Source: Lewinella cohaerens DSM 23179
GTDB taxonomy: Bacteria; Bacteroidota; Bacteroidia; Chitinophagales; Saprospiraceae
Direction: 5' to 3'
Assembly: GCF_000379805.1 (NCBI RefSeq)
Contig: NZ_KB903533.1
Location: 108,845-172,844, forward strand
Length of the DNA: 64,000 nucleotides
Position 1 is the first letter of the stretch, and each line of letters opens with the position of its first letter. Both the position numbers and the translations under genes were made by a program. A model generated the notes under the pieces. The model was not told the DNA's origin, ran no database searches, and worked only from the letters and a program-made list of their open reading frames with translations. Shown here piece after piece: positions 24,110-48,197 of this stretch.

Positions 24110-26617
24110 ATGAATAGAATAGAAGCGTCTTTAAATATTTTGTTTCAAACCCACCGCGTCATCTTCTGGTACGACAAGGAGGAAAAGATGCGTCCGGAGT
24201 ACGAGCAGATTTCCCTGGAGGGTATCGAGAAACTGGAGGTGAGCAACAACGAATTTGCGGTCAAAGCACGCGTATTACAGTCTACGCAGCCGGATGATCG
24301 CTTGTTGCTCTATTTTCCCCAATCGGAGCCTCCCATGGAGCAGAACTGGCTGCTCGACCTACAGTTGGCGCACAAAGTGTTCCATACCGACCAGGAAGCG
24401 CTGTACCTGCAAGACCTGGGGCTGGATTATTTATTCAAGGAACTGGTGCAGCAGCACCTGGAGTTTTTTGAAAGCAAAGAACGACGCGCTCAACTACGCG
24501 AACTACTCGCTGAAGGCGACCAGGAGCCGGATCTGCGCTTCAAGATGATGGCAGTCGTTTTTGGTACGGAGTATCCTAACCTGGAGGCTTACATCCAGGT
24601 TTACGCGGGCGCATTTGTCGATGAAAACAACCGGATCGAGCGCGATCTGGAACGCTTTCGATTACGGGAGGTGTTTTGGCGGGAGGTGAGCCGTAAGTTC
24701 AACTACCCTACGGACGAAAAGACGGGGATCTACGATTTTTTACTGGATGTGTTCGCCCGTAATTTTAGTCCGCTTAATGCAGGCCGTTCTATCAAGGAAA
24801 CCCGGATTTTGCTTTCACTGTGGAAGGATGCGATTTCTTACCAGGAAACTTTTCGGCGCGTATCTGCGAAAATTGCCAGTGATCTGCTGGTCGTGAACCT
24901 CCTGGAGGACTGTGAATTAGAACCCATCTTATCCGACGATTTGTTCGAGCTGGTGGATCGTCGGATCATTTACCTATTGGCTACTCGTTTGGCTAGTGGA
25001 GCGATAAATTTACCCGCTTTTCTGGGACATCTAAAGTTACGGGAGAACAAGTTTTGGTATGCGGACTATGCCGACTTCTACACCTGTCTGGAACAAGGGG
25101 CCCTGCTCTTGGATAAAGTCCAGCGGGCCGAGGAGGTCAACTTTTCTTCGGTAGAAGATGCCGCCCGACAGTACGCGCAGGAGTTGCACCTGATTGACTA
25201 TCACTACCGGAAATTTGTCTACCACTACCGGCAGACAAACCAGAATGCTATTCTGGCTCCTTTAGAAGAGCGCATCCGCAAAGTCTACAGTAATGATTGG
25301 TTGTTGAAGATCAATCATCAGCTTCAGGACAGGATCAATGAAATGGATCATTGGATCCAGCGTTCCCCACAAGCGCAGTCCAATTTCTTCGTCCATCACG
25401 TAGAGCCGGTCACTAGTCGCCCGTCTCGTTTGTTTGTGATCATCTCCGATGCTTTGCGTTACGAAAATGGCTGGGAGTTATGCCAGAAATTACAAGGTGC
25501 CAAACGCTACGAAGCAGAGATGGATTACCTGATCACCAGCTTGCCTTCGTATACCCAGTTGGGGATGGCGGCACTGCTCCCTCACCGAAAATTGGCCATT
25601 AAACCAGAAGATGGGCAGGTGCTGGCCGACGGGATGTCGACCCTGGGGCTCCAGGGCCGCAACAAAGTATTGGAAGCGAATGCCGGGGTACGAACCGTAG
25701 CCATTAACGCAGAAGACTTTATGAAGATGAACGCCAGTACGGAGGGCCGTGCGTTTGTCAAACAATACGACCTGATCTACATTTATCACAACCGGATCGA
25801 CAAGGCCGGTGATGATACCACTTCGGAAGATAAAGTCTTCGAAGCGGTAGAAAAAGAAATCAGCTTCCTCCAGGACCTTTTGCGTAAGATTGGCAATATG
25901 AATGGCAATAACATTTATATCACTGCTGATCACGGCTATTTGTATCAACACGAGCAACTGGAAGAGAGTGAATTTACGAAAGTTGACCTGCTAGGGGAAG
26001 ACTATAAAATCAACCGCAGGTTTGTACTCGGTAAGGGTAATAGTGGGACGGTTCCTCCTGCGCTAAAGCTATTTACGGCAGAGCAGCTGGGGCTGGAACC
26101 CGGCGTAGAGGTCTTGATCACAAAAGGAATTAACCGGCTGCGGGTACGGGGTGCCGGATCACGTTACGTGCACGGCGGAGCTTCCTTACAGGAAATTGTG
26201 GTGCCGCTGGTAAAAGTAGCCCGTAAGCGAGAGGATACTACGCGACAGGTCGAGGTCGACATCATTAAGTCTACCGATAAAATTACGACCAATCTGCTGG
26301 GTGTTTCCTTTTTGCAACAGGAGCTGGTTAGTGATAAGATCCTGCCGCGTCAATTGCGCATCTATTTGCGTGCAGAAGATGGCACCAAGTTGTCGGATAT
26401 CTTCAATTACACCTTTGATGCCACGGAAGGTAGTGAACGGCAACGTGAAGTAAAACACCGGTTCCAGCTAAGTTCCCAGGCCAGTGGCAAATACAAGAAT
26501 CAACGCATTTCACTGGTGCTGGAAGAACCCGTAGCGGGAAGCTCGCGCTGGAAGGAGTACGAATCGTATTTTTATTACCTCAACATTTCTTTCACCAATG
26601 ATTTTGACGACTTTTAG
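24110..26617 (+). CDS. pglZ: BREX phosphatase-superfamily protein PglZ
   Basis: An 835-residue protein, usual length for type 1 PglZ. The alkaline-phosphatase-superfamily core begins at VIISDALRYENGWEL (about 442-456), the hallmark metal/nucleophile motif of the PglZ domain. It continues to YITADHGYLYQHEQL near 602 with the Asp/His metal ligands. The N-terminal 380 residues are the helical PglZ-specific part. PglZ is required for BREX modification and exclusion and is a metal-dependent nuclease/phosphodiesterase in some systems. It lies 61 bases after the insert genes. Its TAG stop (26615-26617) coincides with the first bases of a MITE-like element, which may therefore provide the stop. Confidence 0.94.
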   Translation: MNRIEASLNILFQTHRVIFWYDKEEKMRPEYEQISLEGIEKLEVSNNEFAVKARVLQSTQPDDRLLLYFPQSEPPMEQNWLLDLQLAHKVFHTDQEALYLQDLGLDYLFKELVQQHLEFFESKERRAQLRELLAEGDQEPDLRFKMMAVVFGTEYPNLEAYIQVYAGAFVDENNRIERDLERFRLREVFWREVSRKFNYPTDEKTGIYDFLLDVFARNFSPLNAGRSIKETRILLSLWKDAISYQETFRRVSAKIASDLLVVNLLEDCELEPILSDDLFELVDRRIIYLLATRLASGAINLPAFLGHLKLRENKFWYADYADFYTCLEQGALLLDKVQRAEEVNFSSVEDAARQYAQELHLIDYHYRKFVYHYRQTNQNAILAPLEERIRKVYSNDWLLKINHQLQDRINEMDHWIQRSPQAQSNFFVHHVEPVTSRPSRLFVIISDALRYENGWELCQKLQGAKRYEAEMDYLITSLPSYTQLGMAALLPHRKLAIKPEDGQVLADGMSTLGLQGRNKVLEANAGVRTVAINAEDFMKMNASTEGRAFVKQYDLIYIYHNRIDKAGDDTTSEDKVFEAVEKEISFLQDLLRKIGNMNGNNIYITADHGYLYQHEQLEESEFTKVDLLGEDYKINRRFVLGKGNSGTVPPALKLFTAEQLGLEPGVEVLITKGINRLRVRGAGSRYVHGGASLQEIVVPLVKVARKREDTTRQVEVDIIKSTDKITTNLLGVSFLQQELVSDKILPRQLRIYLRAEDGTKLSDIFNYTFDATEGSERQREVKHRFQLSSQASGKYKNQRISLVLEEPVAGSSRWKEYESYFYYLNISFTNDFDDF

Positions 26618-36361: not shown

Positions 36362-39106
36362 CTAGTTCATCAATAAGCGGATGGCTTTTTGAAAGGTCAT
36401 CCCATTTTGAATGTATCTACTCCCCGATTGATTGGGACGATAATCAATGATCTGGTAAATTGCCTTCTCCGCAAAGTCTTCATTTTCGTACCCCGTAGCA
36501 AAGTCTACTTGATCGGGTTCATTTTCGGAGTAGACAAAACCACTGCCTAACACTGCTCCTATTTTGGCGTAATCGCCAAAGAAATATTCTTGCAATAAAG
36601 GAATGATATTGCGATAAAAAGATTCTTCCAAATCCATCCAATCATTCACCCGAATAAAATAGCTATGACCTATAAGATGGTCCCGGTCAAGTAATTTTTC
36701 AATTCTTCGATTGATGGTTTTTAAAACGTCTTTGAGGTTAAGTCCTTCAAATTTGATCACTCCCTCAAATTTCTCTGATGGAATATTCAAATCATTTACT
36801 GATCCCATATACTCATACTTTTTTGTATTCAAGATAGTCGCTCCAACTAGATCAATAAAACCTTTTTCGGCTTCAATCCATTGAGAGTCATTCGACGCCA
36901 ATATTTTATTTTTCATCCAAAGCCTCTGAAGCATTAGACTCGGTTCAAGCAGTTCTGGCTTGGGCGGCATTTCGGTAAAACTGAATCGTCTTCTTAATGC
37001 AGTATCGAGTGCCTCTACGCTTCGGTCAGCAGTGTTCATCGTACCAATGATGTAAAGATTGGCGGGTACGCCGAATTTTTCTTTGCTATAGGGAAGCATT
37101 ACTTTAAGTGCTTCCTCTTTCCCCAGTCGTTTATCCGCTTCAATGAGCGTAATCAGTTCGCCAAAAATCTGGGAGACATTTCCCCTGTTGATTTCGTCAA
37201 TGATTAGGACGTAGTTTTTTCCTTGCGTAGTGTCAAAGTCTTTTTTGGTCATCTTTTGGACCACTTCAACTTTATCATTATAAGTGTAGGATTTCTCTTC
37301 AACCTTCCCATTTACCCTCTTCCCAGTCTGTTTTATGGCGTTTAAAGCAGACCAGTAAGCGGAGGAATTAATACCACCAATAACTTCTCTAAATTCATTA
37401 TTAATATTACTAACACTATCTAAACTACCTATAGCTGCTTGTAATTTTGTTAATCTCGGCTTGGAAACCGTATAAGTTCTTATCCCATTGTGATGCTTGA
37501 TAATGATATTCCCTTGCTGCGAGATACTGTCAATCAGAACAGTACCACCTGATTTTGTCTTTAATTCAACCTCTTCCTCGTTGATTAGCTTTTCTTGAAC
37601 TTCCTCAATGAACAAATCGTAGAGGTATGAAAAATCCAGTGCTTCGGCGGTTTCTTTTGATTTACTGAACTTGGCAATGTCAAAGGACGCTTCAATACTA
37701 AGTTTTTTAAACAATCCCGGCTCTACTCGGTAAATAACTTCGTCGCCATCTTTTTCAGGTTCAATTGGCTTGATTCCCTCAATAAACTCTTCATAACTCA
37801 TGCTTTGGTGAAAGGTGGTAAAGACGATTTGTCCCTCTTTCAATTTCTTGTCAAACTCCTCCTTTATTTGGGGCCGAGTCAAGCCAGAAATATCTACACC
37901 AACAATTGTAAGTGCCTCATTGATGGTATGGTAGGTTTTACCTGTACCTGGAGGGCCGAAAAGAATTTGATTTAAAGGCGTTTGGGGAGTGTTGTCAGTC
38001 ATTACTAATCCAGGATTTATTATCTCGTCATCGTTTACTATTTCTTTGATTGGAGACAGGTTATCTTGCCTAGGCTTTGAATAATTGCCATAGAATTTAA
38101 AATCTGATATAGGCTTGGGTGAAATTTCCTCAATGGATTCAGCTAAGAATAGGATATAGGCCTTCTTCGTATCATCCTTATAATCTCCGAAGTTGGAATG
38201 AAAGTACTTGATCTTTTTTTCATCCCATTTTTTCTCGGATAGTTCTTTTGCATTGATCGCGAAATCCACGATGTTCGCTCTGTACTGTACATGGCCTTTG
38301 CTACTGTAATAAAGAGGGAAGCTTTGCCCGTCTTTTACTTTTTCTCTTAGAAAATTCAAGGTTTTTTGGCCACCGCTGGGCTTTTTACTATTCCAGGTTA
38401 TTAATCCCGAATATTCTGCTTCTAAGTTTGTTGCATCTTCCTGCCACCCCGTACCATCAGATGCCATTAAGCCGATCACTTCCTCGATCCATTCAGTTCT
38501 GAAAGCATAGACTAGTGAGGAAATTAGATACGTGTAATTGTCTTGATTTTGGAGCTTTAGCTTATACTCGTCAAAATATTCTTTTAAATCATGGATAAAC
38601 TTCGGAGGAGAGTAGTCCTTCTTTAATAAATTGACACTCACCATTTGCCTATGATTATCACTTAAAATGGTGCAATTATCCTGAGGTGATAAAAGGTAAT
38701 TGAAAGCATTTAATATGGACTTACCCGTTATTTCAGCGTGCTTGAATTTGAATTTCACCAAACTTTCTACCCAATTGCCCATGCGGACGCTGGCATCCGC
38801 TAGTACTCGATAGCCATCATATCGATTATACCTTGCTTTGTCTTTAGCCCTGTTGTCACAATAGGCGATGATCTCAAAAAGATTGTCCTTAATTTTTTCA
38901 AATTCAGGATTGATTTCTGTTATTTCCAGAAACTGTGTATAATCCGAAGAAAGACGAATCAAATCCTCCTTCATTTGATCAGATACGTTCAGTTCCAACC
39001 AGTTCTTGAGTGCTAATTGGCCTTTTAGGAAGTAAAAGTCTGTTTCCCTAATAATATTCTGAAAATGCTGCCCCTGGATGGTTTTTTCTATTTCTTGCTG
39101 AGTCAT
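36362..39106 (-). CDS. mcrB: McrB-like GTPase of type IV restriction
   Basis: A 914-residue protein, longer than E. coli McrB (about 460) because of a 380-residue N-terminal recognition region. The AAA+ motor has Walker A ILFGPPGTGKTYHT near 384, an FTTFHQSMSYEEFIEG segment typical of McrB, Walker B YVLIIDEINRGNVSQI near 630, and TMNTADRSVEALDTALRRRF containing sensor 1 and arginine finger. McrB hydrolyses GTP rather than ATP and recognises modified cytosine through its N-terminus. That N-terminus is unrelated to any domain I can name, so the modification sensed is open. It is directly upstream of mcrC. Confidence 0.92.
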   Translation of the reverse strand: MTQQEIEKTIQGQHFQNIIRETDFYFLKGQLALKNWLELNVSDQMKEDLIRLSSDYTQFLEITEINPEFEKIKDNLFEIIAYCDNRAKDKARYNRYDGYRVLADASVRMGNWVESLVKFKFKHAEITGKSILNAFNYLLSPQDNCTILSDNHRQMVSVNLLKKDYSPPKFIHDLKEYFDEYKLKLQNQDNYTYLISSLVYAFRTEWIEEVIGLMASDGTGWQEDATNLEAEYSGLITWNSKKPSGGQKTLNFLREKVKDGQSFPLYYSSKGHVQYRANIVDFAINAKELSEKKWDEKKIKYFHSNFGDYKDDTKKAYILFLAESIEEISPKPISDFKFYGNYSKPRQDNLSPIKEIVNDDEIINPGLVMTDNTPQTPLNQILFGPPGTGKTYHTINEALTIVGVDISGLTRPQIKEEFDKKLKEGQIVFTTFHQSMSYEEFIEGIKPIEPEKDGDEVIYRVEPGLFKKLSIEASFDIAKFSKSKETAEALDFSYLYDLFIEEVQEKLINEEEVELKTKSGGTVLIDSISQQGNIIIKHHNGIRTYTVSKPRLTKLQAAIGSLDSVSNINNEFREVIGGINSSAYWSALNAIKQTGKRVNGKVEEKSYTYNDKVEVVQKMTKKDFDTTQGKNYVLIIDEINRGNVSQIFGELITLIEADKRLGKEEALKVMLPYSKEKFGVPANLYIIGTMNTADRSVEALDTALRRRFSFTEMPPKPELLEPSLMLQRLWMKNKILASNDSQWIEAEKGFIDLVGATILNTKKYEYMGSVNDLNIPSEKFEGVIKFEGLNLKDVLKTINRRIEKLLDRDHLIGHSYFIRVNDWMDLEESFYRNIIPLLQEYFFGDYAKIGAVLGSGFVYSENEPDQVDFATGYENEDFAEKAIYQIIDYRPNQSGSRYIQNGMTFQKAIRLLMN

Positions 39107-39362: not shown

Positions 39363-39740
39363 TCACTCAATAATCCCCCACCGCCGCGCCTGGTCCGGAT
39401 TATTCTCTGCTATGTAATCTTCTAATATCTTAATCCGCTTTTGGAGTTCATTGTTTAGTTGAATGAAAACAGCATCTTGTTTTTGCTCATCCATGCTGGT
39501 ATAAGGCTTTTCAGGGCGGGGGAATTTGGGTGCTTCGGTAGTAAGATCCGTCAATACAAGATCTTGCAAATTCATATCAAAAATATCTGCTATTTGGACC
39601 AGCTTGTCGACGGGTGGATCACTTGTGCCTTTTTCATACTTGGTTACCTGACTTCCATTCACGCCAATTTTATCCCCAAGGTCATTTTGGGTTAAGCCCT
39701 GGCTTTTTCGCAAGTACTTGATATTCTTAGATAAAAACAT
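39363..39740 (-). CDS. XRE-family HTH regulator with coiled-coil tail
   Basis: A 125-residue protein. Residues 1-60 are a classic Cro/CI HTH (NIKYLRKSQGLTQNDLGDKI, then GVNGSQVTKYEKGTSDPPVD). A linker and a C-terminal helical segment (QDAVFIQLNNELQKRIKILE) probably give dimerisation. It is divergent from the module that starts at 39785 on the plus strand, and its own start region lies just behind that promoter, so it may control both directions. In Bacteroidota mobile elements such regulators often sit at one end; which genes it controls here is not shown. Confidence 0.8.
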   Translation of the reverse strand: MFLSKNIKYLRKSQGLTQNDLGDKIGVNGSQVTKYEKGTSDPPVDKLVQIADIFDMNLQDLVLTDLTTEAPKFPRPEKPYTSMDEQKQDAVFIQLNNELQKRIKILEDYIAENNPDQARRWGIIE

Positions 39741-39784
39741 TATTGAAATAAAAATATTTACAGATAAGAAGAAAAAACGTCTTA

Positions 39785-39820
39785 ATTGTAAGGTTTTATG
39801 AATAAAAGGCAGTAAATTTG
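39785..39820 (+). promoter_or_regulatory. Bacteroidota-type promoter of the leader RNA / accessory module
   Basis: TAAATTTG at 39813-39820 is an exact TAnnTTTG -7 box, with an ATTG at 39785-39788 about 24 bases upstream in the -33 place. Transcription would begin near 39827, upstream of a run of hairpins and of the gene at 40064. It faces away from the XRE gene ending its 5' side at 39740. Confidence 0.6.
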
Positions 39821-39880
39821 TATCGAAACAACGATTTAACGGCTAAATTACACCATAAGAAGACACAAACAAAGATTTGA

Positions 39881-40035
39881 CCGGCAAAACTTGCATTTGC
39901 CGGAGGAAACCCTCCATGTCTTTAAGTAAGATACTCCGGGAGTAAACAAGCCAGAGGGCTTGCACTGGGTAAATACGATGGGTGCATTGAAGTTGAATTA
40001 AATCGAGTTATCCCCGGTACTTCGTAACGGGTTTT
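39881..40035 (+). ncRNA. putative structured leader RNA ending in a terminator-like hairpin
   Basis: Five short stems follow one another downstream of the promoter. They are CCGGCAAA/TTTGCCGG (39881-39903, perfect, 7-base loop), GGAGG/CCTCC (39902-39915, sharing bases with the first, so the two compete), ACTCC/GGAGT (near 39930), CAAGCC/GGCTTG (near 39949-39964), and CCC-G...C-GGG with a TTC loop (40013-40031) followed by TTTT. The last resembles an intrinsic terminator or attenuator 30 bases before the ATG at 40064. Stem choice between the first two suggests regulation. I do not recognise a known riboswitch class. Confidence 0.45.
40013..40035 (+). terminator. terminator/attenuator-like hairpin before the 40064 gene
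   Basis: A stem of eight positions with one mismatch (CCCGGTAC against GTAACGGG), 3-base TTC loop, then TTTT. It lies 29 bases upstream of the first gene of the module, so read-through would decide its expression. Confidence 0.4.
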
Positions 40036-40063
40036 AAACAGCTTAAAGATAAAAATTAAATCC

Positions 40064-40411
40064 ATGAGTGCGCCCGTAAAATTACCAGCGGTGAGGTCGA
40101 CCATTCAGCGATGGGTGGAAGACCAGATGGTGGCCAACCAGGTGTCTAAGGAAGACCTGGCGACGGCCCTGGGTATTTCTACCGAGAGAACCACCCGTCG
40201 CCTGAGCGGTTCCAGTGACTTTAAGGCGGCGGAGATCTTCAAGATGGCCCTGCTGTTCGATAAGCATTGGTACAACGATATCGTACGGCCTTTCGAGGTG
40301 GGTACGGATGAAATCACCCTGGGAAAGGCCATTTGTCTGGCCCGCGAAGAAGGGAAAGATTTGTGCCTGATCGACCGCGCAGCAAGTATTCCTCCTCCCA
40401 AAATCTCCTAG
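40064..40411 (+). CDS. small HTH protein, first gene of the accessory module
   Basis: A 115-residue protein. A helix-turn-helix of the XRE type is readable at residues 20-60 (NQVSKEDLATALGISTERTT then RRLSGSSDFKAAEIFK), where the second helix is unusually basic. The C-terminal 45 residues (TLGKAICLAREEGKDLCLID) are not recognised. It follows the structured leader by about 30 bases and is followed after 2 bases by the next gene. Probable DNA-binding regulator of the module; no function beyond that can be assigned. Confidence 0.65.
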   Translation: MSAPVKLPAVRSTIQRWVEDQMVANQVSKEDLATALGISTERTTRRLSGSSDFKAAEIFKMALLFDKHWYNDIVRPFEVGTDEITLGKAICLAREEGKDLCLIDRAASIPPPKIS

Positions 40412-40413
40412 CA

Positions 40414-40803
40414 ATGACCAAAGACACGACTGCCATCTCCAAAGACTTACTGTCTGTACTCATGCAGCAGAATATGCTCCTGCTCCAGCAGCAGAAGGAC
40501 CTGCAAATTGAGCGGGAAGCTTATCGCATTGAGATGATGAAAATGGAGTTCTCCATGCGGGCATCCTTACCGGCGGATACGCGACCGCAGTGGGTGTCTA
40601 AAGACGAAGCGGCTTGGCTACTGGGCCTGACGCTCTTTACCACCGGCCATCACCGACGAGCAATTGGCTGGCTACATGATAACGGTGAGTTGATCACCAC
40701 GGCGGGTGGCCGCAACTCGATGCTTTTTCTTAGAAATGAAGTCATGGAAGTCAATCAACGCATCGTGGAGGGCACCGTAATTGTCCCTAAGAAATTTGGC
40801 TAA
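40414..40803 (+). CDS. excisionase/MerR-like helix-turn-helix protein
   Basis: The ATG at 40414 is chosen over the upstream open frame, which overlaps the previous gene; this gives 129 residues. Residues 15-50 are a glutamine-rich coiled coil (LMQQNMLLLQQQKDLQIERE). The C-terminal half looks like the winged helix of excisionase-type proteins: WVSKDEAAWLLGLTLFTTGH, then RRAIGWLHDNGELITTAGGR. This domain is common in Bacteroidota mobile elements, where it regulates excision or transfer genes. It lies 2 bases downstream of the 40064 gene. The domain type is likely; its role is not shown. Confidence 0.65.
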   Translation: MTKDTTAISKDLLSVLMQQNMLLLQQQKDLQIEREAYRIEMMKMEFSMRASLPADTRPQWVSKDEAAWLLGLTLFTTGHHRRAIGWLHDNGELITTAGGRNSMLFLRNEVMEVNQRIVEGTVIVPKKFG

Positions 40804-40871
40804 CCTTCTGTAGTGGAGGCTAAATAGCCGACGGCTTTTCGATCACAAATTCAAAACACTGTAAAGAACTT

Positions 40872-41074
40872 AGAACTTATTGGAAAATTTGCGAACTGAT
40901 TCTCAATGATTTGCGGTTCTGGCTAAGAAGTCAAAATCGAGCTTAGCGGGCTAAGTGAGATTTTTAGTTCGACGCCAGGTTCGAAAATCCTTGAGAATCA
41001 GGAAGCATCGAGCGATTTCTTTCGAATACTTCAATCATTCGTTTTTCATCAAATTAAATTTTCCAATAAGCTCT
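40872..41074. repeat. MITE-like element, copy B
   Basis: A 203-bp non-coding element collinear with copy A (26615-26821). Terminal repeats AGAACTTATTGGAAAATTT (40872-40890) and its near-complement (41056-41074) match at 18 of 19 positions. Inner arms 40896-40912 and 40985-41001 pair (CTGATTCTCAATGATTT with AAATCCTTGAGAATCAG). Compared with copy A, TTTTC/GAAAA in the arms has become TTCTC/GAGAA on both sides, so pairing is kept. Confidence 0.85.
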
Positions 41075-41224
41075 TAACTCAGCACGCCACGTGCGAGCTG
41101 GGCAAGATGATGCCTGACGTGACGGTTGCTGGCTGGGACTTCGGTCCCGGTCAGTACCTCACCAGGTAGGCTAGACCATTGTTCATTTGTTCCGATAAAT
41201 CGGAATTTAACCAACTACTTACCT

Positions 41225-42574
41225 ATGGGTAATACTGTGATCCTCGTTCCCAAGACCGCTCCCGTTTCCTTCTTTGAACTGCACTTTCAGTACAGTAAGA
41301 AGCTGCTCCGGCAGCACATCAATGACTATAACGCCCAGCAGCAGGGGCCAGGCGCTTTGAAGCTCAAACTGCGGGCGGCGCATATCCAGTTGGCGGAGTA
41401 CCTCTTCCAACTCTACGGCGGGATGCTGCGAGGACAGCAGCGGAGTAGTAGTAGCAATCTGGCCGAGGGCATCCTCCCCGTGCTAAAGACCAGCAACGGA
41501 GCGCTGGCGAAACAACTGGGCACTTGCAAGGCTACCATCATCAACTTGCGTAAACGGCTGGTAGCGGCCAATATCATCGCTTACAAGAAGTGGCACGGAA
41601 GCAATGCGGCCTACGAGCTGGAGCTGAACGCCAAATGCTTGTTTCTGCGCGACCCCAAAGGCCAGCTCAACGCTAATTTGAACGACCTTTTTTTTGGTGC
41701 CCAAACAAAAACTTTTGACCATACAGTGTCAGGTACTCAGTATCCTGAGTATCCTGATCAGGATACTAAGAAAGAAAGAAATAAGAAAGGCGAAGCAACG
41801 GCTCCGATTGTGGAAAACTCAGCTCAGGCTGATGTAGCGGCCGTTCCTTCTTCGGCAAATATTCAGGAAACTGGTTCAGGATACGATGCCAACGTAACGG
41901 ATTCCGCCTCATCCCGCAAGGGCGAAAATCAGGATACCCAGCCCCCCAAGTTGCGCGCGGTCCCCCCATTTGCCAATACCCAGGGAGCTGTGTCGCAGGG
42001 ATTGCCCGAGCGGCTACCCGCCACTATGGATGAGGCCATCGGCTTTCTTAGTCCGGAAAACCAAACAAAGGTCCGCTACGCTGCCGGAATGTGCTGGAGC
42101 AAAGCCCTGGCCTCGATCTACAAAGACGAATGGTTGACCGACCGCCAGAAGGAAGCCGGAATGATTGCCCTGGCGGAATACATCGCTCGTTCGGTTCACC
42201 CGAAACGCTACGATGCCGCCAGGGGAGAAATCCAGGAGCGGCTGGATATGGTTTTCGAATGGGTCAATGACAAGCGTGGGCGCTTTGTGCTGCTGCCGCG
42301 CTACTACTTCGACCTCCGCAACCAAAAGAACGGCGGCTTCTCCGCGACGGAGCGCTGGCTGAAGAAAAAGCAGGTGCGCAACTTCCGTCGGGCGCGCCGG
42401 ACGGCCATCACCAAAGCCGTGAATACCTACCTGAAAGCCTTGCAACCCAATAGCGAAGTCGACCGACAGGAGCTGCATCACCAGTTGACGCAAACCCTGC
42501 GTAAGAAATACGGCGCAAAGATCGTGGCCATCTTTGAAGACCGGATTGATCAGGCCATTCTAAATATGAAATAA
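41225..42574 (+). CDS. replication-initiator-like winged-helix protein of the accessory module
   Basis: The ATG at 41225 (449 residues) is preferred; the frame extends upstream to 41126 but reads as leader. An N-terminal domain has a winged-helix core (NGALAKQLGTCKATIINLRK then RLVAANIIAYKKW, about 88-125), reminiscent of plasmid and ICE replication or transfer initiators. A low-complexity linker (about 160-270) carries five copies of the DNA word TCAGGATAC. The C-terminal 180 residues are basic and helical (RNFRRARRTAITKAVNTYLK). It stands after copy B of the MITE and 1 base before the next gene. I do not recognise a definite Rep family, so the replication role is a guess from architecture. 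Confidence 0.55.
   Translation: MGNTVILVPKTAPVSFFELHFQYSKKLLRQHINDYNAQQQGPGALKLKLRAAHIQLAEYLFQLYGGMLRGQQRSSSSNLAEGILPVLKTSNGALAKQLGTCKATIINLRKRLVAANIIAYKKWHGSNAAYELELNAKCLFLRDPKGQLNANLNDLFFGAQTKTFDHTVSGTQYPEYPDQDTKKERNKKGEATAPIVENSAQADVAAVPSSANIQETGSGYDANVTDSASSRKGENQDTQPPKLRAVPPFANTQGAVSQGLPERLPATMDEAIGFLSPENQTKVRYAAGMCWSKALASIYKDEWLTDRQKEAGMIALAEYIARSVHPKRYDAARGEIQERLDMVFEWVNDKRGRFVLLPRYYFDLRNQKNGGFSATERWLKKKQVRNFRRARRTAITKAVNTYLKALQPNSEVDRQELHHQLTQTLRKKYGAKIVAIFEDRIDQAILNMK
41740..41937. repeat. cluster of TCAGGATAC words
   Basis: Five exact copies of the 9-mer TCAGGATAC or its complement: 41740, 41749 (both complement, adjacent), 41758, 41876 and 41929. They fall in more than one reading frame of the host gene (YPE/YPD, QDT and SGY), so conservation is at DNA level. 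Confidence 0.85.
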
Positions 42575-42575
42575 G

Positions 42576-42890
42576 ATGCCTAAGCACCGAGACAAAGCGA
42601 CCACCGAGTTCGCCTTGCGGATCAAATTCAGGAACAACCCCGACACGACCTTCACCTGGTACCAAAGGGCGAAGGATGCCGAGGAGCAGCTCAGTATCTG
42701 GAAATCCTACCCCTACAAACAGTACAGCGGAGCGATCAAATGGGCGGCGATTCTGCCCGCCGAAGCCGCCAGAAATAAAGCCGACGCCAGTACCCACCTC
42801 TACGAGTACGACACCTGGTCAAACGGAAGTACCTGCTGGCTTAACCGGGAAGAGATAGACCACTTGAAACGCCAGAAAGCAAGAGTGTGA
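42576..42890 (+). CDS. small protein of unknown function
   Basis: A 104-residue, slightly basic protein starting 1 base after the winged-helix protein, hence in the same operon. It is rich in aromatic residues (FTWYQRAKDAEEQLSIWKSY near 25-45, TWSNGSTCWLNREEIDHL near the end) and has one cysteine. No membrane helix or signal peptide is present. No family recognised; it may be a partner of the preceding DNA-binding protein. Confidence 0.6.
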   Translation: MPKHRDKATTEFALRIKFRNNPDTTFTWYQRAKDAEEQLSIWKSYPYKQYSGAIKWAAILPAEAARNKADASTHLYEYDTWSNGSTCWLNREEIDHLKRQKARV

Positions 42891-42906
42891 TGACTTCATA
42901 GAATAA

Positions 42907-43228
42907 TTAGCCACAGAGGCACAGGGACACGGAGTTTTTTTAATCTGCGCCTCTGCGCGACATAAACTTTTGGGAACGTAACCATCCAAATACGCCTATG
43001 CACAGAAAACTACTCTACCTGACTTTTGCTCAACTGGGCCGCTGGGCCTATCGCTACCTGGTTTGGTGGGAAAAGAACGTGCTTAGGACCTTGGATGGAC
43101 TGGCCGATTACTTCAACGAGGACAATTAAAACCAGCAGTTCTCACTACTTAACTATAAAGGCAAAAGACACCGTGAAACGGTTTCGACCAGAAATAAAAA
43201 CCTCCGTACCTCCGCGCCTCCGCGGCTT
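42907..43228. repeat. REP-type inverted pair flanking a 43-codon ORF
   Basis: At 42907-42940 lies TTAGCCACAGAGGCACAG... ending ACGGAGTTTTT; at 43194-43228 is a related sequence in inverse orientation (AAAAACCTCCGTACCTCCGC then GCCTCCGCGGCTTAG). Within the left copy, CCACAGAGGCACAG can pair with CTGCGCCTCTGCG at 42945-42958. This family of CACAGAGGCACGGAG repeats is common between genes in Bacteroidota. Here two copies bracket about 250 bases containing the small ORF at 42998. Confidence 0.6.
42998..43129 (+). CDS. 43-residue ORF between inverted repeats
   Basis: An ATG at 42998 opens 43 codons ending in TAA at 43127-43129. The peptide has a high tryptophan and tyrosine content (FAQLGRWAYRYLVWWEKNVL near 8-27) and could be an amphipathic or membrane-binding helix. 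It is short and bracketed by REP-like repeats, so it may be either a real small gene of the module or a chance ORF. Coding composition resembles its neighbours. Confidence 0.4.
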   Translation: MHRKLLYLTFAQLGRWAYRYLVWWEKNVLRTLDGLADYFNEDN

Positions 43229-43259
43229 AGAAAAATGACAATTACAAACTAAAAATACA

Positions 43260-43640
43260 ATGGAGAATTTTGACAAAATACGCACGAGCATCTTCGGCCA
43301 TTCGCTGGCGATGACCGCCATCAGTAGCCCGCTGCCCAGAGATCTTGCCCGCAGCGAGGTGAAAATAGAAATAGCCTTTCAAGGCCTGAAAGCGACCATC
43401 GTTTCCAACGGGCCAATTACCCATGCCGCCCTTCTAAGAAAGACCGATACCAATTACCCAAGGATGCAGATCCGAAAAGAGTTGCTGATCCTCGAAGGGC
43501 TTTTCTTAGAAAACTACACCTCCTATTTGTCGCGAATGGCCGTCCTGGAGAAAGTGTTTTGGGCTTATCGCGAACTAGGACCCGTTTTAAATATCACCAC
43601 TTCAAAACCTAAGCAGGATGTTACAAATGGAAATTCCTAA
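43260..43640 (+). CDS. small protein of unknown function in the accessory operon
   Basis: A 126-residue soluble protein. It has KIRTSIFGHSLAMTAISSPL near the start and a helical C-terminal half (IRKELLILEGLFLENYTSYL). It overlaps the following gene by 23 bases, so translation is coupled to the HTH/membrane protein at 43618. Two TTCTWAGAA palindromes lie inside it (43432 and 43506). No family recognised. Confidence 0.6.
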   Translation: MENFDKIRTSIFGHSLAMTAISSPLPRDLARSEVKIEIAFQGLKATIVSNGPITHAALLRKTDTNYPRMQIRKELLILEGLFLENYTSYLSRMAVLEKVFWAYRELGPVLNITTSKPKQDVTNGNS

Positions 43641-44460
43641 TCAACCCGTCATGCTCGCTGAGTTCTTAGAAATCAGCCTGGAGGCATTGCGCAAGCAAAT
43701 GAAAAGAATGGGCCTGGTCGAAGGCCGTTTCAATCGCTACGCCAAAATGGACAAACGGACCATCAAGGTGCTCTTAGAGGTTTACGGACAAGAAGAGCAG
43801 GCACAACACTTGTCCACTTCTATAGAAACGGACACCCCACCAAGCGGACAAACGGACGCTTTAAAACCTGTCCACTTGGAAACCCGCCAAACGGACAATT
43901 CTTTAAACGGACACCTTTCTAAAGAAACGGACAAGCAGGCCAGTTTCCCAACGGACATCACGTCTGTTAAACAGGACATACCCACGAACGGACAAGTAGA
44001 TCCTTTTTCTAAAGAAACGGACAGCTGGGTAAGCGGATCGCTTTCCTTAAAAACGGACAATTACCTGGGTATTGATTACACCGAATTGTCGAAAGATGTC
44101 CTGTTGGCTTTGATCGCGATGGTAAGTATGTATGTCCAGATGAACCACACGGCACAGGTGGTGGGTGGCGAATGGCTGCAAGCCTGGGCTTACGCCCTAA
44201 GCATCCAATTTACGGGCTTGGCGATGACGCTTTACAAGGGCAGCCTCTGGTACCTACGGGTATTTGCGCTGGCGGAGTTCTCGATCAACCTGTTGCATTA
44301 CCGCCCCTGGGCCTGTGAGTGGGTAGAAAGCGTGTCCGTTTGTGGTGGAGCAGAAGAGTGGACACGTAGCCTGCTCTTGTCCGCTTTGATCGCCTTTACA
44401 ATCTATAGCTACGTAGAAATATTTGCCGCAAGGCGCAACGAAAAAACGGACATACGATGA
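43618..44460 (+). CDS. HTH-like and membrane protein with repeat-rich linker
   Basis: A 280-residue protein; an ATG at 43627 is an alternative start. The N-terminal 55 residues look like a DNA-binding helical unit (MLAEFLEISLEALRKQMKRM). Residues 60-145 are a hydrophilic linker with repeated TD/KETD steps, encoded by many ACGGACA words. The C-terminal 130 residues hold about four transmembrane helices (DVLLALIAMVSMYVQM, YALSIQFTGLAMTLY, WYLRVFALAEFSINLL, LLLSALIAFTIYSYV). The design, a membrane-tethered DNA-binding protein, recalls mobile-element membrane anchors for DNA. The stop overlaps the next start (ATGA at 44457-44460). Function unknown. Confidence 0.6.
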   Translation: MLQMEIPNQPVMLAEFLEISLEALRKQMKRMGLVEGRFNRYAKMDKRTIKVLLEVYGQEEQAQHLSTSIETDTPPSGQTDALKPVHLETRQTDNSLNGHLSKETDKQASFPTDITSVKQDIPTNGQVDPFSKETDSWVSGSLSLKTDNYLGIDYTELSKDVLLALIAMVSMYVQMNHTAQVVGGEWLQAWAYALSIQFTGLAMTLYKGSLWYLRVFALAEFSINLLHYRPWACEWVESVSVCGGAEEWTRSLLLSALIAFTIYSYVEIFAARRNEKTDIR

Positions 44461-44561
44461 ACTGGATTTTCTTCGCCCTGTCTGGTTACGATCCAGACAA
44501 AGAGGCCCGCAAGCCACGCGCGAAAGCGGACAGCAACAAAAAGCGGATCGTAGAACGGACA
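43828..44561. repeat. cluster of ACGGACA words
   Basis: Exact ACGGACA or complement at 43828, 43891, 43907, 43927, 43951, 43988, 44017, 44053, 44333 (complement), 44446 and 44555, with near matches GCGGACA at 43844 and 44526. Eight exact copies lie within 232 bases. They occur in several reading frames (ETD, NGH, NGQ) and both strands. Confidence 0.85.
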
Positions 44562-44924
44562 ACGGACCTGCCGGAAGACGTAAAGACGAATCCGATTACT
44601 AAGAAAACCGAACGCTACATCCGCGAAGACGAGGACACCCACACCTGGCAACAGGTAGACCAACAGACCGATTTCGGACAACGCAGCAGCACTTTACTGC
44701 CGGAAGAGATCGATTTCCTGAAAACCACCAAGCATTACCTGGTCGAGAAGGGTGAAGTTCTCAAAGTCTATTGGGCCACTGGTTTGACGCCCCGTGAAAC
44801 CGCGCAACAGTTTACCGAACGGGGCTACGGTTACGAAACCATCCGCCTGTACTTCCGCCTGTTCAACCGCTACGAAGCCACCCCTACCGAACAGGAGAGG
44901 GGTTTCGCCCCGGAGGGTGGGTAA
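44457..44924 (+). CDS. small HTH-containing protein of the accessory operon
   Basis: A 155-residue protein coupled to the upstream gene by an ATGA overlap. The N-terminal 80 residues are charged and probably disordered. The C-terminal half ends in a helix-turn-helix-like stretch (TGLTPRETAQQFTERGYGYE then TIRLYFRLFN), similar to resolvase or sigma-4-like DNA-binding helices. It carries further ACGGACA words at its 5' end. Probably DNA-binding; no named family. Confidence 0.55.
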   Translation: MNWIFFALSGYDPDKEARKPRAKADSNKKRIVERTTDLPEDVKTNPITKKTERYIREDEDTHTWQQVDQQTDFGQRSSTLLPEEIDFLKTTKHYLVEKGEVLKVYWATGLTPRETAQQFTERGYGYETIRLYFRLFNRYEATPTEQERGFAPEGG

Positions 44925-44929
44925 GTCTG

Positions 44930-46057
44930 GGTAATTCGTGGAGTGTAAAATGTAATTATCAGATTTTCAATGAATTACAACAAAATGGAATTACCCACTT
45001 ACCCAGGTAATTGGTAGGTAATTGGTGGGTAATTCCGCTTTTAAAAAGCCATAAACATGCAGTATATCATCGTATTAACCATGGCCCTCTACTTCGTCGT
45101 GATGCGTATTTGGGGTCCTGTCGCTGCCTTAATCATCACTACCATCTGGGTAATCGCTTGCGTAGCACTTTACCTGCGGCTAGACTATCGCCGGAAGTTG
45201 CGCCACTACGGCAAGCGCCTGGAGAACATCTACGAGTGGCAGCAATCACCCACCGACAAGCGGGTAGTCGTACGCGCCCAAGAACACGAAGCGTGGATAA
45301 AACTATCGGGTAACAAGATGGGTATTCGGGTAATTACCCTCTTTTACCAAGACGCCCATAACCCCAGCGAAACCTGGGAGGAGTACACCGATAGGGTAGC
45401 GGCCACCATCGCCAACGACCGCATCCTGCGGCACCAGGAGATCGAGCGCTCCCAAGGTCGTGACTATTACCTAAGAGAAATGCACGGTCAGCAAGGCATC
45501 CGTTTTTCCGAAGAACCCGAGCCGGTATCTTTCTGGCGGCGTCTATTCACCCGCAAAAAGCAGCCGGTATGAACCAGGATAAAATTACCATCAAAGTTTC
45601 TAAAGAAAATCCGCCCAATTACCAGCGAAATACCTCCACTTTTGAAAGCATCAGCTACCAGAAAGCAGGGGAGGGGCCGGTAATTACCCACCTGAAGTCG
45701 GTAGGTAGTTTCTTAGAAAGCCTCCCACCCACAATTACCCGCTGGGGCAAGCACGCCTTAAAGCCAATTACCGGTCATTGGCTACGAATTACCATCACTT
45801 TCTTAGTAAAGGGTGGGGGATTGCTACTGGGTAATTGCCTGGTAATGTTGAAAGATCTCCTCATGCTTGTCTATTACCTGGTAATTGGTTCTTTAAAACT
45901 CCTCTTTACCGTTCTTGCTGGTGCATTTACCTCCTCTGGCAGAACTACCCATCCCCTAAAAACCAAAACCAAAGCCAAGCATTACCAACCACCCATCGAT
46001 GACGAATGGTGGCGGCGTAAGCCTCGGCCCAAGGCTGCTAAGAAGAAGCGGGTAATT
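44930..46057. repeat. cluster of GGTAATT words, including an 11-bp-spaced triplet
   Basis: GGTAATT or AATTACC occurs at 44930, 44989, 45006, 45017, 45028, 45329, 45583, 45617, 45679, 45733, 45766, 45787, 45830, 45880 and 46051. At 45328-45339 and 45679-45688 two words merge into palindromes (GGGTAATTACCC, GGTAATTACC). The three at 45006, 45017 and 45028 are direct repeats exactly 11 bp apart in the 132-base gap before the 45057 gene. That resembles iterons or operator arrays. Confidence 0.88.
45057..45572 (+). CDS. small membrane protein of the accessory operon
   Basis: A 171-residue protein. A hydrophobic N-terminus (IIVLTMALYFVVMRI then GPVAALIITTIWVIACVALYL) forms two transmembrane helices separated by a tight turn. 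The remaining 120 residues are soluble and basic (RRKLRHYGKRLENIYEWQQS). The gap before it holds the 11-bp-spaced GGTAATT repeats, so it may be their regulatory target. It overlaps the next gene (ATGA at 45569-45572). No family recognised. Confidence 0.6.
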   Translation: MQYIIVLTMALYFVVMRIWGPVAALIITTIWVIACVALYLRLDYRRKLRHYGKRLENIYEWQQSPTDKRVVVRAQEHEAWIKLSGNKMGIRVITLFYQDAHNPSETWEEYTDRVAATIANDRILRHQEIERSQGRDYYLREMHGQQGIRFSEEPEPVSFWRRLFTRKKQPV

Positions 46058-46084
46058 CGGGTGATTGTGGAGGTGGAGGAGTGA
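45569..46084 (+). CDS. basic membrane-associated protein, last gene of the accessory operon
   Basis: A 171-residue protein. Two hydrophobic segments around 85-125 (ITFLVKGGGLLLGNCLVML and LMLVYYLVIGSLKLLFTVLA) suggest a hairpin in the membrane. The tail is strongly basic (RRKPRPKAAKKKRVIRVIVE), which would suit DNA or phospholipid contact. It contains nine GGTAATT/AATTACC words, in both orientations. It is coupled to the 45057 gene by an ATGA overlap. It faces the convergent Cas6-like gene 24 bases away. No family recognised. Confidence 0.6.
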   Translation: MNQDKITIKVSKENPPNYQRNTSTFESISYQKAGEGPVITHLKSVGSFLESLPPTITRWGKHALKPITGHWLRITITFLVKGGGLLLGNCLVMLKDLLMLVYYLVIGSLKLLFTVLAGAFTSSGRTTHPLKTKTKAKHYQPPIDDEWWRRKPRPKAAKKKRVIRVIVEVEE

Positions 46085-46107: not shown

Positions 46108-46791
46108 TTAACCTATTCTAGGACTAATCAATTTTTCCAAAACTCCAAATCCATGACTAACTCCCTTACCAAGGCCAATATTTGATGGTAAAATCAACTG
46201 CGTGCGGAATTCTAAATCAAAAGCTGGCCTCAATATTTGGTGGAGGGCTATAGGGCGCTGGCTGGTGAGGTTGGTAATCTCAATGTCAAAACGACCTGGA
46301 ATACGCCAGTGGACACTTTTGGCAAAGCTGATGAGGTGGCCGGGGATTATGCGGGCAAGTAGTGCTATCTTGTCTTGGAGTAGATCCAAATTCTGCCATT
46401 GTTCAAAGTTGTCCTTATTGAATGGCAGGTAATTATGGATGCGATAGGAATGCCATTTTTGATCAAGATGAAGTTCATAGTTATCCAATTGAAAGTTCCT
46501 TATTCCTAAGGAAGTAAGTGTGTTTTTCCACCTGATTTGCCATTCGTTGACTGCCAAGGTTTGCTGAACATCTTTCACCGCTTCTTGGATGGCTACAAAA
46601 CCTGCCTGCCTACGATAGGTTCTATATTGCAGGAGAGGATAACGGTAAATAACTTTTCCATCCCCACTGCGATGATTATGAAATCGGTCTACTTCCCAGC
46701 CCGCCATTTCGCACCAAGCTCCCCTCCAGCGGGAAATTTCTGCTAGGGTAAGTGGTAAATCGAAAGTTGTGGTAAGGAGTTGTATGTTCAT
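46108..46791 (-). CDS. cas6: stand-alone Cas6b-like CRISPR RNA endonuclease
   Basis: A 227-residue RAMP-type protein. The N-terminal half matches the Cas6b N domain: EISRWRGAWCEM, FHNHRSG near 37, then IYRYPLLQYRTY near 47-58 and FVAIQEA. The C-terminal half ends with the glycine-rich loop typical of Cas6 (NIGLGKGVSHGFGVLEKL near 203-220). Cas6 enzymes cut CRISPR precursor RNA at repeat stem-loops. No CRISPR array or effector cas gene lies in this window. The gene is divergent from an mCpol gene 132 bases away, so the two share a promoter region. It may process another structured RNA, act only by binding, or be left over from a CRISPR locus; its intact frame argues against simple decay. Confidence 0.85.
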   Translation of the reverse strand: MNIQLLTTTFDLPLTLAEISRWRGAWCEMAGWEVDRFHNHRSGDGKVIYRYPLLQYRTYRRQAGFVAIQEAVKDVQQTLAVNEWQIRWKNTLTSLGIRNFQLDNYELHLDQKWHSYRIHNYLPFNKDNFEQWQNLDLLQDKIALLARIIPGHLISFAKSVHWRIPGRFDIEITNLTSQRPIALHQILRPAFDLEFRTQLILPSNIGLGKGVSHGFGVLEKLISPRIG

Positions 46792-46923
46792 ACCAGCACT
46801 ACAGATTATTAATGTTTATAAAGTATCTTATTTTTGCTGTGGGATAAAACTAGAAAAGAATCCTAAAGTAATCGATAAAACCTATTTTTACAAACTACTT
46901 TGCTAACTATAGAATCATAAATA

Positions 46924-47298
46924 ATGACCAAAAGTCTATACGTAGGATTGGATGGCGATAGCATAGGCCGCGTCATTGAATCTTTTCTGATAACCAATAA
47001 TGAGGAGGCAGTTCAAGAATTTAGCAATAGGATCGTTGAAGTACTAAATATCATTCGCGACCAAGTGCTTCTTAAGGACGGTAAGGTTCTTTTTTGTAGC
47101 GGTGATAGTATTTTGTTTTTTGGTGATTTTGATTTCACGTACATTAATGATATTCGAGAGCTTTTTAGCGAAAGAACAGGGAGAACAGCATCAATTGGAA
47201 TGGGGTATACCTTAGCAGAAACATATCTTGGATTAAAGCTGGCAAAATCCAAAGGAGGAGATCAAATTGTTCATTATGTTCTTAATGAGAAGGTATGA
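46924..47298 (+). CDS. minimal CRISPR polymerase (mCpol), predicted cyclic-nucleotide synthase
   Basis: A 124-residue palm-domain protein, the size of mCpol. The first metal site is YVGLDGDSIGRVIE (D10, D12). The second is FCSGDSILFFG (residues 57-67), corresponding to the GGDD of Cas10 with Ser in the last place. The C-terminal ASIGMGYTLAETYLGLKLAK, then SKGGDQIV, is the conserved helix of Cas10/GGDEF-like palms. Stand-alone mCpol proteins make cyclic oligonucleotides; in Panoptes defence mCpol (OptS) keeps a membrane effector (OptE) silent. Here it is coupled by an ATGA overlap to a different, apparently soluble partner. Low GC compared with the neighbours suggests recent arrival. Confidence 0.85.
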   Translation: MTKSLYVGLDGDSIGRVIESFLITNNEEAVQEFSNRIVEVLNIIRDQVLLKDGKVLFCSGDSILFFGDFDFTYINDIRELFSERTGRTASIGMGYTLAETYLGLKLAKSKGGDQIVHYVLNEKV

Positions 47299-48197
47299 GG
47301 AAGAATATTTTCATTTTCACTTCTATTGGAGCAAAACCTGATCCATATATCAATATTATTTGCAATTGTGTAGATAAGTTTGGAGTTGATATCATTGAGG
47401 ATTTTCATCTTCTTAAAGTTTTAGAACTAAATGAGTTTAATAACCCTGATTTGCTTGGAGAATTAGGTGTGCTAAGAAATAATATTTTGATTCAATTAAG
47501 GAAATTATCACAGTGTAGTTATCTTGATTGGGATAGGGATAGTAATGATTTTAAAACAGAGGCTAGAGGCATTGTGATAGATCAAAGTCATCAAGATCTT
47601 TACGGTAGTGTTTTAAATAAAATTCGCAGAAATGAAATAAAAACTGATCATATTGTTAGTGATGATTTAGCTAACTGGCTAGAAAGAAGGATAAATAATT
47701 CATCATACGAATTTATTACTGATTTAACTCTTGTTGATAAGATAGATTTCCTGAAGATAAGTATGGTTCTCCTTTCCAGGGATAGCAGTATTTACTACTT
47801 TAAAGTACATCGAAGATTTTCACATGATGAAGGAGATTTGATTCATAACCTTATGGTTGATAATAAAAAACTTCTTTGCGACCACATTAACCTAACCCCC
47901 AAAGGCTACCAAATAAATAAGCTAGAAAAATCGATCTCTGTTGATTTACTAAAAGCAAAGTGGACGAAAAGAATAAAAAATGGTGAAGACTTAATAAGTG
48001 TTTTAGAAGAGATAGATATAGAATTAGAGTCAAGTCGAAGCTTTTCAGGGGACGAAAAAATACTTGTTGTTCAGTGGCTAACAAACCTAAGGAGGTTCAA
48101 TAAAAAAAATGATAAAAATTTAATGACAAATAGTGATTTAGAAAAGAAAGTAGCTGAAATCCAAGTGTCAGTTATTAAGTTTCTTGGTTCTTTTTAG
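47295..48197 (+). CDS. putative CARF-like nucleotide sensor/effector coupled to mCpol
   Basis: A 300-residue AT-rich gene whose ATG overlaps the mCpol stop. The N-terminus FIFTSIGAKPDPYINIICNC is the beta1-loop-helix pattern that opens CARF domains of Csm6/Csx1-type proteins (for example VxxxG(T/A)xPxPxxxxI). A helical middle and a charged C-terminus (about 220-300) follow, without membrane helix, HEPN Rx4-6H or PD-(D/E)xK motif that I can see. I infer that it binds the mCpol product; whether it also kills or signals is unknown. It differs from the two-helix membrane effector of known Panoptes pairs. CARF assignment is tentative; the coupling is certain. Confidence 0.55.
   Translation: MRKNIFIFTSIGAKPDPYINIICNCVDKFGVDIIEDFHLLKVLELNEFNNPDLLGELGVLRNNILIQLRKLSQCSYLDWDRDSNDFKTEARGIVIDQSHQDLYGSVLNKIRRNEIKTDHIVSDDLANWLERRINNSSYEFITDLTLVDKIDFLKISMVLLSRDSSIYYFKVHRRFSHDEGDLIHNLMVDNKKLLCDHINLTPKGYQINKLEKSISVDLLKAKWTKRIKNGEDLISVLEEIDIELESSRSFSGDEKILVVQWLTNLRRFNKKNDKNLMTNSDLEKKVAEIQVSVIKFLGSF

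What the first reader, a model, noticed from the sequence alone, without database searches (positions are those of the whole stretch)
44930..46057. GGTAATT word: fifteen copies, two fused palindromes and an 11-bp-phased triplet
Expected number in 1.1 kb is about 0.14. Copies lie both in the gap (three exactly 11 bp apart, same face of the helix) and across two coding genes in both orientations. They end sharply at 46057. The phased triplet looks like an operator or replication iteron; the coding copies are unexplained.
Basis: seen in the sequence. Interest (0 to 1): 0.7.

Follow-up and report, generated by a model that had tools for sequence, protein, structure and literature searches.

The report
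Provirus-encoded DNA-binding-site array, word GGTAATT
A leftover early region of a small bacterial virus carries 15 places with the same 7-letter DNA word; related elements keep the layout of the main cluster but change every copy of the word together, so it looks like the docking-site set of one of the element's own DNA-binding proteins, with extra sites kept by selection inside a neighbouring gene.

Summary
In detail: 15 places (17 strand matches) of GGTAATT in 1.13 kb, against 0.25 expected from the genome-wide count. They lie in the early part (39363-46084) of a provirus-derived module. An intergenic array (44930-45034) has sites stepping 21-21-16-18-11-11 bp; ten more matches lie inside gene 45569-46084.

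Four related loci show that this is most likely a protein-binding array. Three keep the layout very closely: two use the same word, while a provirus elsewhere in the same genome has CGTAAGTA at seven sites. A fourth, distant cassette has an analogous but shorter array with ATGCAA. Two specificities in one cell argue against a host protein; the best candidate reader is the adjacent helix-turn-helix protein 44457-44924 (inferred, binding untested).

The copies inside gene 45569 are under selection as DNA: 0 of 66 word bases differ from the orthologous locus, against 69 of 441 others, and codon shuffling never reaches the observed number. The pair in gene 45057 is not selected.

The module carries further private words (AACGGACA, CAGGATAC). 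Operator, centromere and origin cannot be separated here; an operator-type nucleoprotein switch is favoured. It works like plasmid R388 stbDRs or mycobacteriophage stoperators but is a member of neither on features tested.

The parts
39363..46084 (.). Provirus-derived early module: repressor (39363-39740, -), Cro-like (40064), replication-like protein (41225-42574), then the cassette 43618 / 44457 / 45057 / 45569. Relatives with late genes at L008 (G000:C79) and L007 (G002).
44930..45034 (.). Intergenic site array, core GTAATT: 44931+, 44952+, 44973-, 44989-, 45007+, 45018+, 45029+ (steps 21, 21, 16, 18, 11, 11), with an AT-rich centre. Full heptamers at 44930+, 44989-, 45006+, 45017+, 45028+.
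   Evidence: layout conserved in L006, L007, L008
44457..44924 (+). Gene for a 155-aa protein with a C-terminal helix-turn-helix, directly upstream of the array; inferred reader of GGTAATT
   Evidence: AlphaFold model helices 82-90, 96-107, 112-118, 126-140 with block pLDDT about 73-80; its divergence parallels the word change; PDB fold hits are DNA-binding domains in the main but not significant
45057..45572 (+). First gene downstream of the array, N-terminal membrane segment; holds the palindrome 45329-45338, which is within chance and not conserved
45569..46084 (+). Second downstream gene, two membrane segments; contains 10 GGTAATT matches (45583-, 45617-, 45679+, 45682-, 45733-, 45766-, 45787-, 45830+, 45880+, 46051+) kept by selection on DNA
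43618..44460 (+). Gene for a protein with an HTH-like N-terminus and a hydrophobic C-terminus; carries the second word island
43753..44567 (+). Second word island, AACGGACA (11 exact copies; AACGGAC 14) across genes 43618 and 44457, in all three reading frames; conserved in L006 (11), L007 (17-18), L008 (20)
41740..41937 (.). Third, smaller word island, CAGGATAC (5 copies; three within 27 bp), inside the replication-like gene 41225-42574; 6 copies in L006, none in the diverged L007 and L008 genes

Best explanation
GGTAATT is the recognition word of a DNA-binding protein encoded by the element itself, most likely the helix-turn-helix protein of the adjacent gene 44457-44924. The protein fills a helically phased array between its own gene and the two-gene membrane-protein operon 45057-45569, and the additional sites inside 45569 enlarge or stabilise the nucleoprotein complex. 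Shown: the array, its conserved layout, concerted replacement of the word between relatives, and DNA-level selection on the copies in 45569. Inferred with less certainty: that the complex acts chiefly as an operator-type switch on the downstream operon (and perhaps on itself), rather than as a centromere, membrane tether or replication origin.
For: (1) Excess over genome background. (2) Layout preserved while the word changes: GGTAATT in window, L006 and L007; CGTAAGTA at seven sites in L008. A weaker, fifth case is L070, with ATGCAA pairs 10 bp apart on either side of an AT-rich centre. (3) The window and L008 lie in the same genome, so word specificity is set by the element, not by a host factor. 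(4) Module proteins whose relationships match the word pattern (window, L006, L007 together, L008 apart) are 44457 (67% against 42%), 45057 (75/34%), 43260 (absent in L008) and weakly Rep (40/28%). Genes 43618 and 45569 (L007 closest to L008) and the repressor and Cro (L007 most distant) do not match. Of the matching ones, 44457 has an HTH and touches the array. (5) The cassette recurs in L070 with no Rep or repressor seen on the 5.2-kb contig. (6) Copies in 45569: codon shuffles 0 of 3000; 0/66 differences inside words against 69/441 outside, p=6e-5; third positions 0/26 against 37/143, p=0.001. (7) At one homologous place the window has CCAATTACC and L007 has GGTAATTG, the same word in opposite orientation encoding different residues. 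(8) Module genes are under purifying selection between window and L006 (dN/dS 0.04-0.34 where computable).
Against: No binding data. Only five loci are known and two of them are orthologous. The AlphaFold model is weak overall (mean pLDDT 55) and no PDB fold match is significant. The copies inside 45569 are absent from L008, and in L070 the words inside the corresponding gene differ from that locus's intergenic word, so the coding sites are not a fixed part of the system. Both orientations occur, unlike known transcription-blocking sites. No Bacteroidota-type promoter motif (TANNTTTG) was found in the array.
Confidence: 0.55

Rival explanations
1. Centromere- or tether-type maintenance site: the array and the dispersed sites gather a bound protein that positions the extrachromosomal or excised element, possibly through the membrane proteins of the cassette, as StbA with the stbDRs of R388 or ParB with parS.
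For: Direct repeats with 10-11 bp pitch next to the gene of a small DNA-binding protein, as in R388; extra sites spread over 1 kb in both orientations; neighbouring proteins carry membrane segments; an IHF-consensus site sits in the array centre of L007 and L008 (9 and 5 of 500 shuffles).
Against: No ParA-like ATPase was seen among the cassette proteins; the L070 cassette stands without replication genes on its short contig, where a centromere would be idle; the IHF match in window, L006 and L070 is not above chance.
Confidence: 0.25
2. Replication origin: GGTAATT copies are iterons for the element's initiator.
For: Iteron-like pitch and AT-rich centre; a replication-like protein lies in the module (PHROG replication hit E=0.009).
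Against: The replication-like gene carries a different word of its own, CAGGATAC, the better origin candidate there; no DnaA box in the array and no GC-skew switch at it in L007 or L008; sites run 1 kb into genes; the L070 contig has the cassette without an initiator gene seen.
Confidence: 0.1
3. Local word spreading by a mutational process (slippage, template switching, gene conversion), without function.
For: Several neighbouring genes each have their own word; coding copies vary between loci.
Against: Sites share little beyond the heptamer (mean flank match 1.0 base against 0.67 expected); zero substitutions inside the words of 45569; array layout conserved while the word is replaced at every site; most tandem arrays of this word found elsewhere have an 8-bp unit, unlike this one.
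Confidence: 0.07
4. Protein-level constraint: the words are a by-product of amino-acid composition and codon use.
For: GGTAATT can encode V-I or L-V-I and antisense I-T; 45569 has membrane segments.
Against: Codon-shuffled genes with the same protein and the same codons never reach 10 copies (0 of 3000); copies use several frames and both strands; intergenic copies cannot be explained.
Confidence: 0.03

Closest known systems
Plasmid R388 stbDRs bound by StbA (PMC3098194)
   Same: Short direct repeats (9 bp plus 2, i.e. 11-bp pitch) at the promoter region of an operon, bound by a small plasmid-encoded protein; the same motif also occurs elsewhere in the element
   Different: Word, proteins and gene order unrelated by sequence; here inverted copies and ten coding copies; no StbB-like ATPase seen among the cassette proteins; StbA DNA-binding domain (7pc1) only as a non-significant fold match (E=4.3)
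Cluster A mycobacteriophage operators and stoperators (PMC6550527)
   Same: One phage-encoded protein, many sites spread beyond promoters, consensus diverging together with the protein between related phages
Lambda-type origin inside the initiator gene (ori-lambda within gene O; PMC6022878)
   Same: Binding sites inside a coding gene; the best parallel for the CAGGATAC island in the replication-like gene
   Different: GGTAATT sites lie outside the replication gene and next to another DNA-binding protein gene
P1 parS and other ParB centromeres (own knowledge)
   Same: Heptamer boxes on both sides of a bend region with an IHF site
   Different: No ParA or ParB seen; IHF site significant in only two of five loci

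Membership tests
Operator array of an element-encoded regulator | Clustered repeats of one word far above background | tested here: met
Operator array of an element-encoded regulator | Site sequence changes together with an element-encoded protein while layout is kept | tested here: met
   correlation with 44457 over few loci
Operator array of an element-encoded regulator | Protein binds the word and controls the adjacent promoter | not testable with these tools
   needs EMSA and reporter assays
Cluster A stoperators | Sites mainly in one orientation relative to transcription | tested here: not met
   In gene 45569: 4 plus, 6 minus
Cluster A stoperators | Reader is the immunity repressor | tested here: not met
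   Repressor and Cro identities do not follow the word pattern
R388 stbDR / StbA | Direct repeats at about 11-bp pitch next to the gene of a small DNA-binding protein | tested here: met
R388 stbDR / StbA | Homology of the DNA-binding protein to StbA | tested here: not met
   No family or meaningful PDB sequence match; fold match to 7pc1 not significant
Iteron replication origin | Iterons beside the initiator gene, with DnaA box or skew switch | tested here: not met
   the replication-like gene has another word
ParABS centromere | ParA ATPase and ParB-type protein in the module | tested here: not met
   Profile searches of the module genes gave no such family
Simple tandem repeat | Constant period with copied flanks | tested here: not met

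The most novel reading that the evidence does not exclude
The module is built from several DNA-binding proteins that each own a private word and place many copies of it inside neighbouring genes (AACGGACA around an HTH-membrane protein, GGTAATT around 44457, CAGGATAC in Rep). Together with the membrane proteins they form an undescribed membrane-linked nucleoprotein system, for silencing, segregation or exclusion, whose site sets are swapped as a whole between relatives.
Probability: 0.2. Interest if true: 0.75.

Novelty: new variant of a known kind. Interest (0 to 1): 0.5.

Why it matters
It gives a natural series of related arrays in which a whole site set has moved to a new word, with two versions coexisting in one genome. 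That allows a direct test of how a DNA-binding protein and its sites co-evolve. It also shows, in a poorly studied group of small phages, binding sites held inside a coding gene by selection on DNA and not on protein, a constraint that ordinary annotation would miss.

Tried and rejected
Searches of IMG/VR with 43618, the packaging ATPase and 45057 found no relative; likewise genome contigs with 43618 and INPHARED with the ATPase. Pfam, PADLOC and NCBIfam gave nothing for 43618, 44457, 45057 and 45569 above cut-off. Fold search of the 44457 model returned HTH domains, response regulators and sigma region 4 in the main, none significant. The virion-type protein L008:15323 could not be placed by fold or sequence, so the phage class stays open. 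IHF site as a general feature: not above chance in three of five arrays. Helical phasing of coding copies: not supported. Selection on the 45057 palindrome: not supported. The weak relative of 45057 in G190 (L009) was not a module: the match lies antisense to a long open frame. Host-wide word (HIP1- or uptake-type): rejected, the genome count is ordinary. A BREX or restriction motif was considered because the window holds BREX; rejected because the enrichment is confined to the module and a second module in the same cell uses another word.

Full report
Observation. One search finds 17 strand matches of GGTAATT between 44930 and 46057, which are 15 distinct places because two are fused palindromes (GGTAATTACC at 45329 and 45679). 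The genome holds 1633 copies in 7.30 Mb, so 0.25 is expected in this 1128-bp stretch; a Markov-2 model gives 0.27 per 1.2 kb and p about 1e-22. The 11-bp triplet 45006/45017/45028 is real. A triple of this word at close spacing was found in 9 of 249 relatives; those with 10-11 bp pitch are the module loci in G000 and G002, while the rest are 8-bp tandem arrays except one 12-bp array in G191.

Setting. The window is G000:C3:108845-172844. The word lies in the last part of a module 39363-46084: a repressor resembling RstR (62 bits, below the NCBIfam cut-off of 80), a Cro-like protein, a replication-like protein, then 43618 (HTH-like N-terminus, hydrophobic C-terminus), 44457 (C-terminal HTH), 45057 and 45569 (membrane segments). 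Relatives with late genes are L008 in the same genome (C79) and L007 in G002. They add a packaging-type ATPase with weak terminase and Zot matches, and L008 also an amidase and a lytic transglycosylase-like protein. The window copy and L006 in G002 lack the late genes. A HipA-like gene lies upstream in both, and both module copies evolve under purifying selection (dN/dS 0.04-0.34 where computable).

The array. Counting the core GTAATT, the intergenic sites of window and L006 step 21, 21, 16, 18, 11, 11 bp with orientations + + - - + + +. L007 has the same with additional sites. L008 has CGTAAGTA at seven sites, with steps 10, 60 (= 21+21+18), 18, 11, 11, 10; the two positions missing from L008 hold degenerate copies by eye. 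A distant cassette in another genus, L070, has 43618-, 44457-, 45569- and 45057-like genes and an analogous, shorter array with the word ATGCAA, in pairs 10 bp apart on either side of an AT-rich centre. Its correspondence to the other four is by position and general layout, not by alignment.

Who reads it. Window and L008 modules share one cell but differ in word, so specificity must be element-encoded. Protein identities follow the word pattern for 44457, 45057, 43260 and weakly Rep. They do not for 43618, 45569, repressor, Cro and 40408. Gene 44457 is adjacent, has a four-helix C-terminal segment with an HTH pattern (block pLDDT about 73-80 in an otherwise poor model), and is present in L070. 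This is inference; the number of loci is small.

Coding copies. In 45569 the window and L006 have 10 matches each, L007 has 4, L008 none. Codon shuffles preserving protein and codon use give a mean of 2.4 and a maximum of 7 in 3000. Between window and L006, 0 of 66 word bases differ against 69 of 441 others (Fisher p=6e-5); at third positions 0/26 against 37/143 (p=0.001). At one homologous place window has CCAATTACC and L007 GGTAATTG, with different residues. The pair in 45057 is within chance and not conserved. Coding copies are unphased.

Other words. The same module has AACGGACA (11 copies in window and in L006; 17-18 in L007; 20 in L008; 201 in the whole genome) in gene 43618 and the start of 44457, in all three frames, above codon-shuffle maxima. 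The core CGGACA is also enriched in the 44457-like gene of L070 (8 copies, 0 of 200 shuffles). CAGGATAC occurs five to six times in the replication-like gene of window and L006 but not in the diverged genes of L007 and L008. More distant proviruses with a related ATPase carry CTTAAG islands around the start of their late genes.

Mechanism. I favour an operator-type nucleoprotein array read by 44457 and acting on the 45057-45569 operon, with the sites in 45569 as auxiliary sites. The reason is the position between regulator gene and operon, and the recurrence of the cassette without replication genes seen in L070. A centromere-like or tethering role comes next, a replication origin third. The mutational and protein-level explanations are disfavoured by tests.

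Comparison. By mode of action the nearest are R388 stbDRs/StbA (9-bp repeats with 2-bp spacing at an operon promoter; PMC3098194) and Cluster A stoperators, whose consensus diverges with the repressor (PMC6550527). I therefore rate it a new variant of a known kind.

Noticed in passing
43753-44567: AACGGACA word island (11 exact copies; 201 in the whole genome) in genes 43618 and 44457, stronger than GGTAATT and conserved in L006, L007 and L008.
   Followed up: partly
41740-41937: CAGGATAC repeats (three within 27 bp) inside the replication-like gene; possible in-gene origin. Absent from the diverged genes of L007 and L008.
   Followed up: partly
L036:11953-14962, L038:2868-4257, L039:6652-7738: CTTAAG/CCTTAAGG islands around the start of the late genes in more distant proviruses with a related ATPase; in G058 8 of 87 genomic CCTTAAGG lie within 3 kb, and another five within 1.3 kb at C56:346754.
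   Followed up: partly
L070:3835-5195: The distant cassette has further words inside and after its genes, TTCGGCGAA and GACAAG/AAGACA, different from its intergenic word ATGCAA.
   Followed up: partly
39363-39740 (-): Repressor gene is only 66% identical to the orthologous locus L006 while most module proteins are 92-97% (45569 82%): fits immunity-region exchange.
   Followed up: no
46108-48197: Next to the module: Cas6 (-), an mCpol-domain protein and a CARF-TM-like protein; in L006 the module is followed instead by a repeat array and cas1/RT-like genes.
   Followed up: partly
about 7654-39106: Defence island: BREX-like set with PglZ type A (24110-26617) and an McrB-like gene (36362-39106) upstream of the module.
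   Followed up: no
L008:11649-11999: NACHT-like gene with 12-bp units encoding GLVGGLV/FGLV repeats in its membrane segments, within the provirus.
   Followed up: no
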